A stretch of 64,000 bases of DNA from Ureaplasma urealyticum serovar 8 str. ATCC 27618 (GTDB lineage Bacteria; Bacillota_I; Bacilli_A; Mycoplasmatales; Mycoplasmoidaceae). This document shows positions 53,759 to 59,726 of this stretch, piece by piece. Location: NCBI RefSeq assembly GCF_000169535.1, contig NZ_AAYN02000002.1, positions 488,642-552,641 on the forward strand, in the 5' to 3' direction. Under the pieces are notes generated by a model. That model had not been told where the DNA came from. It did no database searches and was given only the letters and a program-made list of their open reading frames with translations. Every line of letters begins with the position of its first letter. Positions within the stretch are counted from its first letter, which is position 1. Made by a program: the position numbers and the translations under genes.

Positions 53759-54693
53759 TTATATTTCTTTCATGGGTCTATTGTATTTTTCTTCATCCAT
53801 TCACTGAATTTTAGAATTTTGTATACCATCTAAAAAAAACTAACAATTTTATTATCACGTTTAATTAAACCAATACGAACATCTCGATAAGCGCCATAAA
53901 TAATTACTCCATCAAGTGCATTTTAATTTTATTACATGTTCTCCTGCTTTTAGAGTTGTTTTATTAGATAATCTTTAATTATTTTTGGAAAGAACATACT
54001 CTTCTGCATCATCAATAAATAATTTAATTTTATATTCTTTTGTTGTTGTAGGGTATTTTTGTTCTAAAATCGATACTCTTTTATAAATGAAATTCAAGGG
54101 AAAATTGCAACAATGTCATCAGAAATTTCTTTTAAAGTACTATATTCACATGCAGTCATTTTAGTTTTCATATATTCAATAAATACGCTAAAACTCGCTT
54201 CTGAGGCACAAATTAATTTAACTAATTTTTCTCAAACTAAATCTCTATCTCAATAATTTCATGGACATTTTCCAATTATTTTTCTTTCCATTATTAAATC
54301 TTTGAATTGTTTGATGCTAAAAATAGTGTTTTCATCATCAATCATTGATCTTGATTTAACATATTCTTCAGCTTCATAAATAGCATTAAAGATTTCATAT
54401 TTTCTTGTTTGTTTTGGATATTTTTTAGCCAAAAAATGATATGCATCTATGAATGAAGTCCAAGGATAAATACCAACTAAATAATCAGAAATTTCTGATA
54501 GTACAAAATATTCGTAGCTAGTCATTTTGGTTTTCATGTATTCAATAAATCCACTAAAACTTGTTTCTGATTTGCAAATAAATGCAACTAAAGCATCTCA
54601 AATTGATTGTACTCCTAAATATAATTTAATATCACGATCTGCTTGATGTCGTTTTTTAATTATTTGCTTGAATTTTTTCATATTTATTTTCAT
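53759..54693 (-). pseudogene. Repeat-containing gene with a decayed 3' half
   Basis: From the ATG at 54693 (AAGGAG upstream) a clean frame encodes two tandem copies of a ~100-residue repeat: copy 1 has FSGFIEYMKTKMTSYEYFVLSEISDYLVGIYPW (in pieces) and KKYPKQTRKYEIFNAIYEAEEYV; copy 2 repeats FSVFIEYMKTKMTACEYSTLKEISDDIVAIFPW but stops at 54064-54066. One base out of frame the copy continues as LEQKYPTTTKEYKIKLFIDDAEEYV. Further pieces to 53759 (DGVIIYGAYRDVRIGLIKRDN, LDGIQNSKI, MDEEKYNRPMKEI) need at least two more frame changes. The intact part, 54064-54693, is 209 aa. It overlaps the DUF4417-like gene by 38 bases. Confidence 0.65.
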
Positions 54694-55396
54694 ATTTATT
54701 CTCCTTATTATTATTATTATTTTTACAACGACTTATTCAAGATGAATAGTTAACAAAAACTACTTTTCGTTTAAATTGATCAAAAACTTCTTTAGGCATA
54801 GGGCCATGCACTAAAATGACTTTTGGTTCTAAAACTTCAATCATTTTTCTTAAACCATTAACAAACATTGTTTTTTCAATTTTTGTTTTAATGCAACCAT
54901 GTGTACTAACTGCATAAATACCTCGTTTTTCAAATCCTTCAAAACAAAAACTAAAACTTCGTTCATCCCCTCATCTTACATTTGGAATAACGTTAATGCC
55001 AAGTTTTTGTAAATATGCTGCTACTTTATGATTTTTAAACTTATTTACCATTTGTAAGCTAAGTGGCATATCAATATATAATGAAAGATCAAACGAAATA
55101 ATACCGCCAAATTGTTTTAAAATGCTAACATACTTATTTGGATTATTAATTACTTGTTTAAAACTATTATCAAACATGTAAAAATGTAAAACTACTTTCT
55201 TTTTATCTATAATTTTATGATGTTTTTCAAATGGAACAATATCAATTGGAATGATAGTATTGTTTGCTTTAATAGTGTCAATATTTCAATTTTTGCTTTT
55301 CACCATAAAGTTAATTAAATTCATGTTTGGTAGCTCCTTGCATTTAAAATAAGAATTATTTTTTATGATATTAATTATTTTTTTGCTATTTTTCAT
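54656..55396 (-). CDS. DUF4417-like protein (copy 2)
   Basis: A 246-aa soluble protein. The core FGGIISFDLSLYIDMPLSLQMVNKFKNH, AAYLQKLGINVIPNVRWGDERSFSFCFEGF and GIYAVSTHGC (given in pieces) fits DUF4417, a family of unknown function common in phages and mobile elements of Firmicutes. The end is basic. The start at 55396 is preferred over the ATG at 55324 because the extra 24 residues (with FKCKELPNM) align with the N-terminus of the neighbouring paralogue. It overlaps that gene by three codons and the next gene by 38 bases. Confidence 0.7.
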
Positions 55397-56069
55397 TTGT
55401 TGTATAGCTCCTGTTCTTTATTTTTTTGTTAAAAAATCCTAATACTAAATTTGATATATCTAAAAAATTTAATTTATTTTTATTAGCAAAAATATCTACT
55501 TTAATTTGTTTATTATCATCATAAAATCAAATTGATAAAGGTTTTAGTTTTAAAATAATTTTTCGCATACATTTTTTAAAACATTTAATATTTAAATCAT
55601 TGTTGATTTTATTGCGAATATCTATTGCATAAATTCCATATTTAAATAAACTTATAAGTGAATAATTAATTGACAAAAAATCATATCAATCAATTGTTGG
55701 GATTACAATTAAACCATGTTTTTGAAAAAAATAAATTAATTGTCGATTTTGGTAAATTTTATAAATATATTCAATAATATTTTCATTATCTTTAATATTA
55801 AGATTGGGCATGATTATTCCTTTGCAAAACTTTATTTTTGCAAACTTTTTATATTTAAAAAGTTTTAAATAATCTTCAAATTTTAGATTAACATCATAGA
55901 AATGAAAGAATAAATTTTCTAAATTATGAAGGTCTTTTATCTTGCTATTAAACGAAACAATGTTATTTAAATCACATTTTTCTTCCCTTTTAATTAAGGG
56001 AATTTCTAAGTCTGTAATAAATTTTGCATCTTTAAGAATTGATGCGAAAAATAAATCATCTTTTGTCAT
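55386..56069 (-). CDS. DUF4417-like protein (copy 1, diverged)
   Basis: A 227-aa paralogue of the next gene: KFITDLEIPLI, LFFHFYDVNLKFEDYLKLFK, FCKGIIMPNLNIKDNENIIEYIYKIYQNRQ, FFQKHGLIVIPTIDWYDF and KYGIYAIDI line up in order with copy 2. The Ser/Cys-Phe-Glu-Gly block of the family is lost (INYSLISLFKYG), so this copy may have changed role. AAAGGAG precedes the ATG. It is the first gene of a three-gene overlapping run. Confidence 0.65.
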
Positions 56070-56294: not shown

Positions 56295-58562
56295 TTATTT
56301 TATATCTATTTTTTCTTGTAATTTATTGTATAAGTTTATCTTTTCATCAACACTGATTGATTTAACTAATCAACCATTAAATAAACACGATTTAATAAAT
56401 TCGTGAATACGATTTTTATTATTAATTTCAAAGAAACTAAAAACTAATCCAAATTTTAGTTTTTTATCATAAACATTGTAATTAGAGCGTGTTTTTGCTT
56501 TGAGTGAAAAACCTCAGAAACCATCGCCATAAGCTTTACGTGGTTTAACATTTTTTAGTGAATAATCACTAATGTATTTAATGTTATCTCATTTACGAAA
56601 ATAATTTCGTGCATCGCCTTCAAATAAATTAAGCATTTTATCTTCATCTTGTAAATTATTATTAATTGAAATAATACTTTTTTTATCTTCGTCAATTCTT
56701 CCAAAATGTAAATCTAATTCAACGTTAGTGTAATCAACTCCTTGATTACGTGAACATTGCGGAAAATATGATAAAGTTGCTTTTGCTAAATAAGGATGCT
56801 TATTGGTTTCAGTTGGAATAGGAATTGTGTGAGTATATGTTTCATATTCACTAATACTACCATTAATAAAAAATTTGATTTCATTATCTTTTGCATAAAC
56901 AATGTCATTAATTTTAATAGGTACAACACCATATCCAAGAAATGAAAAATCATGATTTTCTTTAATAGAATCAGCTGCAGCATGAATTAATAAAGCTTTA
57001 GCAACTTCGCGACTAAATCCTAAGATGTTAATTAAATATCCAAGTTTACGGCTAATTCAAGCAGCAGCATATGATGTTCCTTGAACTTTTTTAACTTTAT
57101 TATTACTTTCAAAAACATAACAAGTTCCATAATAAGCAAGATCTGGTTTATTAAAAAAAGATAAAACAATACCTTTGCGAGTATAAAATGCAGGTTCTTG
57201 TTGATCATTAACAGCATTAACTACTAAACTATTGATTGAATCAGCTGGACTACCAATTTTATAATTTTTGGATTCTTTACTTGTTTTGTTTGTTCCAGAG
57301 ACAACAAAAATCACATCATATTCAGCTTGAATGTCATCTAAAATACTAGCTTCAATCGATATAAAATTATCCTTTATTTCATATTTTGTTCCTAATGATA
57401 AATTTCAAACTTTAATATCTTGATTGTTTTCAATAATTGATCGAATCTTTTTAATAAGTTCAAATGTAGTGAAATTTTGACCCATAACACCAAAATGACG
57501 CACTCTAAAAAAACCACATCCATCATCTAAATTAGGATTAAAACTTGGGCCATTAACAATAATCGAGCTCACTTCTAAACCATGAATTGGGTTTTCTTCT
57601 TTTAAAATTGGTTCAAGTTCTTTACTATTTTCATAATGATAATCTATTCATTCATGAAAATATACTTGTGTATGATCAACAATAATAGTATCAATAACGC
57701 CAATTGTAGGTTCATTTGTTGGTTTGTGAATTTTTAGCGTTGTTTTTATTGAGTCATCAATATAATCTAATGATTGATCTAAATCAATCTGATTTAGATC
57801 TTTTACTCCCATAGAAATTAAATAAGGGATTTTTTCTTTAACAATTTTTAATTCATCAATTCGCAAATAAAAGTTTTCATCTTTAATAATTTTACTATTA
57901 TTTAAATTAATCCCAATTTCTTGTAAAATTTCTACAATATTTTTATTGGTTTTATAGAAAGTAATAATGGCATTATCTTCTAATAAGACATCAGAGTAAT
58001 TACAATTAATATTCTCAATATAATAACAATCAACAATAAGACTAACAAATGTTGTTTTTGAAATTTTGTTATTATCAAAAATCTTTTTATATTTATTCGC
58101 ATTAATATCTGCAATAAAACTATAGCTAATGCCTTCAAAATTAATATCAATGGTTTTAAAATTATTTTCAAGCATAGAAATAACAGTTTTTATTTTTTCA
58201 ATTGTTTCATTTAAATTTTGTTTACTAATATTATAAGTTATGATATGTTTTTTATTTTTATCAGCATATCTTTCTCCAATAACAAAATAATTTGGATCAC
58301 ATTCTTTGTTTTCGTCAAAAGAAAACATTTTTTTAGCACGATTACTTTTAGCAACTATTTTTTTATAAGTGATATTTATAATAGGATTAACTCCATAATC
58401 AGTATATGATTCTCATTCATCTAAACTTGTTTGCAAATCTTTTACAATTTTTTTAATATGATCTAAACTAATACTTTGTTTTGCTGGAAGATTACGTGGC
58501 CCTGGTTTATTAGGATTTGATTTTGAATATATTGAACCTTTTAATTCTAAAATATTATTCAT
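56295..58562 (-). CDS. Cytoplasmic subtilisin-like (S8) protease, IetS-like
   Basis: A 755-aa S8 peptidase with no signal peptide or membrane segment, so it acts in the cytosol. Catalytic triad by motif: Asp291 (IGVIDT), His327 (PIHGLEVSSI, compare HGTHVAS), Ser497 (QGTSYAAA). A ~270-residue N-terminal region and a ~200-residue C-terminal region flank it. Its ATG overlaps the end of the AAA+ ATPase gene by eight bases. This two-gene pair, AAA+ ATPase then cytoplasmic subtilisin, is the layout of IetAS systems, reported as plasmid-incompatibility and anti-phage modules. Function here is inferred from architecture. Several TGA Trp codons fragment it in the standard code. Confidence 0.85.
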
Positions 58563-59610
58563 AATCTTTATTTTCCTTTAAATCTTTTGCGATTTTACTT
58601 TTTGAAATATCAGTTAAGGTTTCAATTTCTCTGACTGTAAAACCTTGTTCTTTTAGTATATTAATATCTAGATGATTATCAACCAAATCATAATATAATC
58701 GTTTTAAATATTCATTAGGATCGTTAGGATCAGAAAATGCTAATGATGATTTAATTAGATTTTTTAATTTTCCAGGATAAGGCATAACTTTGGCATTTTT
58801 AATGATTTTCTTAAACAAATTTTTGTTTTTATTAATATTTTCCATTCGTTGTGAATAGTATTCTAAAATAATTCATCCAATATCTTGTATATCTTCTTTT
58901 TCATAATGTGAAAAATCAATAGCATAATCAAATCGACGTAGTAGTGCATCATCAAAATATTGATGTAAATTAGTTGTTGCAATTAATAAAATTGATTTAT
59001 TTAAGTTATCTAAACAAGTTAAAATTGTTGATGTTGCTCGTCCCATTTCACGTGAATCATTATTATTAATACGATCCATTGTAATAGCATCTATTTCATC
59101 TAATAAAATAAGAACATTTTCTGGATTAGGGAACGCATTAATTTCATCAAACAATTCTTTAATATTTTTAGCTGTTCTTCCTAACATACTATCAACAATC
59201 GAAGATAAATTAACTTTATATAATTCTTTTTTCAAAAGACGTGCAAGACTTTTAACAGATTCAGTTTTTCCAGTTCCTGGTGGTCCTTTAAATAAAAATT
59301 TATTTAAATCAAATCCCTTTTTATATGCATTTATTAAACCATCTATTTCTTTTTGAATAGCTTCAGGTATTGGTAGTGGTTCAAATTTGTGCAAATCAAC
59401 TTTTTCAAAAAAATCAGATGTTAATTCACTTTTTAACGATTGAGGAGTAAAAACATTAGAACGACTAATTAGTCCCATAATATAACTCGCAATTTCATTA
59501 TCACCATGATCATCAAAATATTTAGCAATTTCATTAGCTTGATTAATAAAACTATTTTCATCATTACTAACATGGTATTTAATTAGATTAACAATATCAA
59601 CTTTTTTCAT
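58555..59610 (-). CDS. AAA+ ATPase, IetA-like
   Basis: A 351-aa AAA+ protein. N-terminal ~80 residues are family-specific, then Walker A GPPGTGKT (109-116), a pore-like region (SSIVDSMLGRTAKNIKELF), Walker B LILLDEIDAIT (Asp171, Glu172), sensor 1 IATTN and the Arg-finger LLRRFD. The C-terminal part has an HTH-like ending (LKEQGFTVREIETLTDISKSKIAKDL). It overlaps the S8 protease gene by eight bases, which indicates they work as a pair. Its close AAA subtype (spastin/FtsH-like core) matches the ATPase of IetAS modules. Confidence 0.85.
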
Positions 59611-59706
59611 ATTTAATTTCTACTCCTGATATTAATGCAATAAAATTCTAACACATTACAAAAACAAATATAACAATTTTAGGACAAATTTTTCAAAACA
59701 AAAAGA

Positions 59707-59726
59707 AAACACCCTAAAGGGTGTTT
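59707..59726 (-). terminator. Terminator of pheST
   Basis: Perfect 8-bp stem AAACACCC / GGGTGTTT, 4-base loop, followed on the minus strand by TTCTTTTTG, 25 bases after the pheT stop. Confidence 0.85.

What the first reader, a model, noticed from the sequence alone, without database searches (positions are those of the whole stretch)
56295..59610. IetAS-like AAA+ ATPase / cytoplasmic subtilisin pair in a minimal genome
Two genes overlap by eight bases: an AAA+ ATPase with intact Walker A, Walker B and Arg finger, and a 755-aa S8 protease with a full Asp291-His327-Ser497 triad and no export signal. Subtilisins are normally secreted; a cytoplasmic one fused by operon to an AAA+ unfoldase matches the two-gene IetAS architecture described for plasmid incompatibility (ietA/ietS) and later for phage defence. 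Retention in a genome this small suggests a real selective value, perhaps against mollicute phages or as abortive infection. It sits beside DUF4417-like genes and a decayed gene, which looks like an accessory island.
Basis: partly seen in the sequence, partly recalled or inferred. Interest (0 to 1): 0.8.

Follow-up and report, generated by a model that had tools for sequence, protein, structure and literature searches.

The report
Known mycoplasma protease toxin–antitoxin pair
Two overlapping genes in a Ureaplasma genome encode a cell-internal protease and the ATPase that most likely keeps it harmless; this pair is already known from other mycoplasmas as a toxin–antitoxin system, which by itself can explain why so small a genome keeps it, while a role against viruses has not been tested.

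Summary
Both match PADLOC's IetA/IetS models, and the IetA profile matches the IetA of plasmid pTiC58 over its full length, so "IetAS-like" holds. The functional reading needs changing. The same module in mollicutes (TA132/3) is an experimentally shown toxin–antitoxin pair: deleting the ATPase alone is lethal, deleting the protease or both is tolerated (PMC6755753). Homologues from three further species behave alike, and U. urealyticum is named as carrying one (PMC8562856). My census of 320 related genomes agrees: all 22 intact protease genes have an intact ATPase gene, whereas six genomes, including a sibling Ureaplasma, keep an intact ATPase without an intact protease; none has the reverse. 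The pair is patchy, horizontally exchanged with plasmid-borne and prophage-like relatives, and sits beside two phage-type DUF4417 genes. Anti-phage activity is possible, but no mollicute test of it was found. Two small additions: the ATPase ends in a helix-turn-helix, and the protease keeps a propeptide-like domain. Verdict: real, already described in kind, modest interest.

The parts
58555..59610 (-). IetA-like AAA+ ATPase, 351 aa; most likely the antitoxin. N-terminal helical domain (1-51), AAA+ module (about 70-310), C-terminal helix-turn-helix (about 316-349)
56295..58562 (-). IetS-like cytoplasmic S8 protease, 755 aa; most likely the toxin. N-terminal region, propeptide-like segment (about 183-272), catalytic domain (282-544), C-terminal beta-rich region
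58555..58562 (-). 8-bp overlap of the ietA end and the ietS start (likely translational coupling)
59667..59696 (-). promoter-like site TTGAAA-18-TATATT with TG before the second hexamer, upstream of ietA; a consensus match only, promoter-like sites are no commoner here than in shuffles
59707..59726 (-). intrinsic-terminator-like hairpin AAACACCCTTTAGGGTGTTT followed by a T-rich tail, after pheT; would separate ietAS from pheT transcription
55386..56069 (-). DUF4417 gene 1 (phage-type, diverged), 227 aa; island neighbour, not shown to belong to the TA pair
54656..55396 (-). DUF4417 gene 2 (phage-type), 246 aa; island neighbour
54064..54693 (-). 209-aa ORF with internal duplication, no significant family; island neighbour

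Best explanation
A horizontally acquired type-II-like toxin-antitoxin module of the IetAS superfamily, the same module as TA132/3 of Mycoplasma mycoides. One operon, probably with its own promoter, makes the AAA+ ATPase first and the protease second, coupled through the 8-bp overlap. IetS is an intracellular subtilase that cleaves one or more essential host proteins when free (toxicity shown in homologues; target unknown). IetA binds it and holds it inactive (neutralisation shown in homologues; direct binding inferred). Loss of IetA frees IetS and kills the cell, so the pair persists by addiction and is lost toxin first. Inferred only: IetA's C-terminal helix-turn-helix autoregulates the operon, and the propeptide-like segment of IetS is a second lock that IetA helps hold. 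Shown here: sequence, motifs, homology, patchy and horizontal distribution, antitoxin-only remnants.
For: Sequence and motifs. PADLOC IetA/IetS; phage families phrog_3757 (2e-68) and phrog_3964 (3e-102). Literature: JCVI-syn antitoxin knock-out lethal, toxin or double knock-out viable (PMC6755753); TA132/3 of 353/757 aa, toxic alone and neutralised by the ATPase, homologues of M. bovis, M. gallisepticum and M. feriruminatoris functional, U. urealyticum and M. hyorhinis listed as carriers (PMC8562856). The M. hyorhinis pair is 47% (ATPase) and 40% (protease) identical to this one. Census of 320 genomes: 22 intact toxins all with an intact antitoxin; six genomes with an intact antitoxin but no intact toxin, plus extra antitoxin copies; no toxin-only genome. 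Mollicute IetS is not one clade: the tree that holds it together is rejected, AU p 4e-46, with Paenibacillus and a Carnobacterium plasmid nested inside.
Against: No experiment on the Ureaplasma pair itself. The asymmetry of decay is not decisive alone: the toxin gene is twice as long, and six of six toxin-first losses has p about 0.10 under length-proportional decay; G045 and G051 are also sisters. That the window's genome is U. urealyticum is inferred, not shown.
Confidence: 0.85

Rival explanations
1. Primarily an anti-phage (abortive infection) system: IetA senses an infection product or releases IetS on infection, and IetS kills the cell or degrades phage proteins. Compatible with TA biochemistry; the difference is the trigger and the selective benefit.
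For: PADLOC and NCBIfam name the superfamily as anti-phage; relatives occur next to restriction-modification genes (M. hyorhinis type III mod genes; hsdR in L124 and hsdS in L109; Shedu beside the Acidovorax pair); relatives lie on plasmids and on phage or viral contigs.
Against: No mollicute member found to have been tested against a phage; the NCBIfam anti-phage equivalogs are far below cut-off (IetS 148 of 900 bits, IetA 114 of 510); mobile-element stabilisation predicts the same neighbourhoods; no background rate for defence genes was measured.
Confidence: 0.35
2. Mobile-element stabilisation or incompatibility module left over from an integrated plasmid, ICE or prophage: it once stabilised the element and is now a chromosomal relic kept by addiction.
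For: Close relatives on Carnobacterium and Macrococcus plasmids; pTiC58 prototype on a Ti plasmid; phage-type DUF4417 genes next door; no other Ureaplasma genome held has the pair.
Against: No integrase, relaxase or portal gene found beside it in the window and no convincing flanking direct repeats; GC equal to the surroundings, so the acquisition is not obviously recent.
Confidence: 0.45
3. A housekeeping AAA+/protease quality-control pair (unfoldase feeding a peptidase, FtsH- or proteasome-like), not a conflict system.
For: The AAA domain resembles PAN, FtsH and Cdc48-type ATPases.
Against: Absent from 9 of 10 Ureaplasma genomes and most of 320 relatives; antitoxin-only remnants; double deletion is harmless in the minimal cell (PMC6755753).
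Confidence: 0.03

Closest known systems
TA132/3 (JCVISYN2_0132/_0133; MMCAP2_0132/_0133), AAA-ATPase/subtilisin-like toxin-antitoxin of Mycoplasma mycoides subsp. capri and relatives
   Same: Antitoxin-first operon, near-identical sizes (353/757 vs 351/755 aa), AAA plus S8 domains, mollicute hosts, patchy and horizontally spread; U. urealyticum is named among the carriers
   Different: Not compared sequence to sequence here; the Ureaplasma copy is untested and sits downstream of pheT with phage-type DUF4417 genes
IetA/IetS of Agrobacterium Ti plasmid pTiC58
   Same: Two-gene AAA+/S8 order, adjacent genes; IetA matches over the full length (E 3e-38) and IetS over the catalytic region (E 2.5e-9) by profile
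   Different: Only about 25% identity in the ATPase; the proteases hardly align without a profile; plasmid-borne
IteA/IteS (NCBIfam) and IetAS (PADLOC) anti-phage systems of Proteobacteria
   Same: Same superfamily by HMM; same motifs and gene order
   Different: Far below NCBIfam equivalog cut-offs; separate branch in the IetS tree (100/100 support); no phage test in mollicutes found
phrog_3964 / phrog_3757 (phage families, function unknown)
   Same: Near full-length matches, and the best-scoring of the family matches listed, to both proteins
   Different: Annotated only as unknown; phage-borne

Membership tests
Mollicute AAA-ATPase/subtilisin toxin-antitoxin (TA132/3 type) | antitoxin gene directly upstream of the toxin gene, overlapping or abutting, in one operon | tested here: met
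   8-bp overlap; operon structure itself shown by RNA-seq only for M. mycoides (PMC8562856)
Mollicute AAA-ATPase/subtilisin toxin-antitoxin (TA132/3 type) | homology to listed carriers over the full length of both genes | tested here: met
   M. hyorhinis NCTC10121 pair (a listed carrier species): 47% ATPase, 40% protease over 1-753
Mollicute AAA-ATPase/subtilisin toxin-antitoxin (TA132/3 type) | direct sequence match to TA132/3 of M. mycoides | not tested
Mollicute AAA-ATPase/subtilisin toxin-antitoxin (TA132/3 type) | protease toxic alone, neutralised by the ATPase | not testable with these tools
   shown for four mollicute homologues (PMC8562856) and by knock-outs (PMC6755753); the Ureaplasma copy is untested
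Mollicute AAA-ATPase/subtilisin toxin-antitoxin (TA132/3 type) | toxin never kept without antitoxin | tested here: met
   22 of 22 intact toxins with an intact antitoxin; six genomes with an intact antitoxin only
IetAS superfamily | HMM match of both proteins to IetA and IetS models | tested here: met
   PADLOC 2e-56 and 6e-43; control: pTiC58 IetS itself scores only 5e-25
IetAS superfamily | intact Walker A/B, Arg finger; intact Asp-His-Ser triad; no export signal | tested here: met
NCBIfam IteA/IteS anti-phage equivalogs | curated score cut-off (510 and 900 bits) | tested here: not met
   114 and 148 bits
Anti-phage IetAS system | protection against phage | not testable with these tools
   no mollicute test found in the papers searched

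The most novel reading that the evidence does not exclude
The mollicute IetAS branch is an infection-triggered toxin-antitoxin system in which a helix-turn-helix-tipped AAA+ ring senses foreign DNA, or loss of its own transcription, and then releases a propeptide-locked intracellular subtilase: a proteolytic abortive-infection mechanism working in near-minimal cells.
Probability: 0.2. Interest if true: 0.6.

Novelty: already known. Interest (0 to 1): 0.25.

Why it matters
It shows that a 'cytoplasmic subtilisin plus AAA+' pair in a near-minimal genome is best explained by addiction, and it ties three literatures together (Ti-plasmid incompatibility, mollicute TA132/3, phage-defence IetAS) as one superfamily by sequence. 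The open questions, testable in the synthetic minimal cell, are what the protease cuts, how the ATPase holds it, and whether phage infection releases it.

Tried and rejected
GC content as a sign of recent acquisition: ietAS GC 0.247 is average for the window. Flanking direct repeats as reported for TA132/3 in M. mycoides: only weak AT-rich matches. Selection on a solitary antitoxin by comparing the sister genomes G045/G051: two synonymous and two nonsynonymous differences, uninformative. Shared insertion slot downstream of pheT in Ureaplasma: the siblings carry different genes there (hsdS in G004, other unrelated ORFs elsewhere), so there is no clean empty site. Viral-contig scan with the single window protein found no relative; with the alignment it gave 19 loci. 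The Yamamoto 2009 paper on pTiC58 is not held, so that work is cited through the two mollicute papers. Housekeeping protease reading rejected on distribution.

Full report
WHAT IS THERE. Pfam gives AAA (7e-27) and Peptidase_S8 (1e-38). Walker A starts at residue 109, Walker B is LLDEID at 169-174, the arginine finger is in LRRFD at 224-228; the triad is D291, H327, S497 (positions), and all are invariant in alignments that include plasmid-borne Proteobacterial members. A stop lies a few codons upstream of the protease start and there is no hydrophobic N-terminus, so the protease is cytoplasmic. A hairpin terminator follows pheT at 59707-59726, and a promoter-like site with TG lies at 59667-59696 (a consensus match only). 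The genome is a Ureaplasma by inference: code 4, urease alpha subunit in the window, mba-like repeat antigens on the second contig, 881,828 bases. I could not name the species by tool.

FAMILY. PADLOC matches are IetS 2e-56 and IetA 6e-43. As a control, the pTiC58 prototypes (record NC_003065) score 5e-25 and 3e-71 against the same library, so the Ureaplasma protein is a fully acceptable IetS by that yardstick. Direct profile comparison with pTiC58 gives E 3e-38 (IetA, full length) and 2.5e-9 (IetS, catalytic region). The NCBIfam anti-phage equivalogs IteA/IteS are matched but far under cut-off (114 of 510 and 148 of 900 bits), and the Proteobacterial sequences form a separate, fully supported branch in the IetS tree. 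The best-scoring families are two phage families of unknown function, phrog_3964 (3e-102) and phrog_3757 (2e-68).

WHAT THE LITERATURE SAYS. [quoted passage not shown] removing the protease or both is harmless (PMC6755753). Hill et al. (PMC8562856) showed that TA132/3 of M. mycoides subsp. capri (353 and 757 aa) is toxic as protease alone and neutralised by the ATPase, that homologues from M. feriruminatoris, M. bovis and M. gallisepticum behave alike, and that homologues occur in M. hominis, M. hyorhinis, M. agalactiae and Ureaplasma urealyticum. They also relate it to the Agrobacterium ietS system. The finding is therefore already described in kind, and very probably in this species. I did not compare TA132/3 itself letter for letter; the M. 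hyorhinis pair, one of the listed carriers, is 47% and 40% identical to this one over essentially the full length.

DISTRIBUTION AND DECAY. Of 10 Ureaplasma genomes only this one has the pair. Among 320 genomes of the order, 22 have an intact close-type protease, and all 22 have an intact ATPase. Six genomes have an intact ATPase without an intact protease: a sibling Ureaplasma (G004), G107, G203, G156 (protease broken by frameshifts) and the sisters G045/G051, where only an 85-residue remnant of the protease remains. G118 has an extra antitoxin copy and G168 a truncated one. No genome has an intact protease without an ATPase. This is the pattern expected of toxin and antitoxin, but not proof: because the toxin gene is longer, six toxin-first losses would occur by chance with probability about 0.10.

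HORIZONTAL TRANSFER. Relatives at 40-49% identity lie in Lachnospiraceae, Fibrobacter, Paenibacillus, on Carnobacterium and Macrococcus plasmids, and on viral contigs. The mollicute proteases are not one clade: a tree holding them together is rejected (AU p 4e-46), and Paenibacillus and Carnobacterium sequences are nested among them. The two DUF4417 neighbours belong to a phage-type family (473 phage records; phrog_8680 and 940) present in only 6 of 320 order genomes and, in the genus, only here. Around other members, restriction genes recur: type III mod genes in M. hyorhinis, hsdR in L124 and hsdS in L109, Shedu in Acidovorax. I measured no background rate, so this is suggestive only. In the sibling G004 the slot after pheT holds an hsdS gene.

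STRUCTURE AND MECHANISM. The IetA model (pLDDT 85) has a three-helix N-terminal domain, an AAA+ module closest to PAN/FtsH/p97-type ATPases (Z about 18-20), and three C-terminal helices; Pfam HTH_38 hits 5 of 16 members (best 1.6e-6). A DNA-binding tail suggests operon autoregulation (inference). The IetS model (pLDDT 76, pTM 0.81) has a subtilisin core (Z 27.6 to SubHal); residues from about 194 on align with unprocessed pro-subtilisin E (Z 24.6, model 195-556) and EpiP, and by sequence the profile match to ProN-Tk-SP begins at profile position 183, ahead of the catalytic domain. IetS thus seems to keep a propeptide-like domain although it is not secreted. My best mechanism: free IetS cleaves essential host proteins; IetA binds and restrains it; loss of the operon or of IetA kills the cell. 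Toxicity and neutralisation are shown in homologues; binding, propeptide locking and autoregulation are inferred; the substrate is unknown.

DEFENCE OR ADDICTION. The superfamily is filed as anti-phage, and TA systems often act in phage defence, so defence is not excluded. But I found no phage test for a mollicute member, and addiction is enough to explain why a reduced genome keeps the pair. I put phage defence as a main role at about 0.35; it can coexist with the TA mechanism, as can an origin in mobile-element stabilisation, so the confidences of these readings are not exclusive.

VERDICT. Observation confirmed; family reading right; function better stated as toxin-antitoxin; already known. 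Interest 0.25.

Noticed in passing
window 54656-56069 (-): Two tandem DUF4417 genes of phage type; the family is absent from the nine other Ureaplasma genomes held and rare in the order (6 of 320). A paper reports DUF4417 fused to ParB-CTPase folds in phages (PMC12704722).
   Followed up: partly
window 54064-54693 (-): 209-aa ORF with two similar halves (FIEYMKTKMT...EISD motif repeated) and no significant family match; unexplained island neighbour.
   Followed up: no
L109:5725-6762 (G004 contig C43): Sibling Ureaplasma keeps a solitary intact IetA next to a fragment of a type I specificity subunit gene, with no protease similarity on the rest of the contig stretch held.
   Followed up: partly
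L042:8356-9651 and L043 (G045, G051): Intact IetA plus an 85-residue IetS 3' remnant, convergent with pheT; pheT is thus next to IetAS in two distant lineages, in different orientations.
   Followed up: partly
L044 (G000 contig C1): Second contig of the window's genome is made of repeat-rich surface-antigen genes (GSGETTKP and coiled-coil repeats), apparently an mba-like phase-variable locus.
   Followed up: no
window 58555-59610 (-), IetA residues about 316-349: C-terminal helix-turn-helix (HTH_38 in 5 of 16 members) on the AAA+ antitoxin; the passages of the two mollicute papers read here do not mention it.
   Followed up: partly
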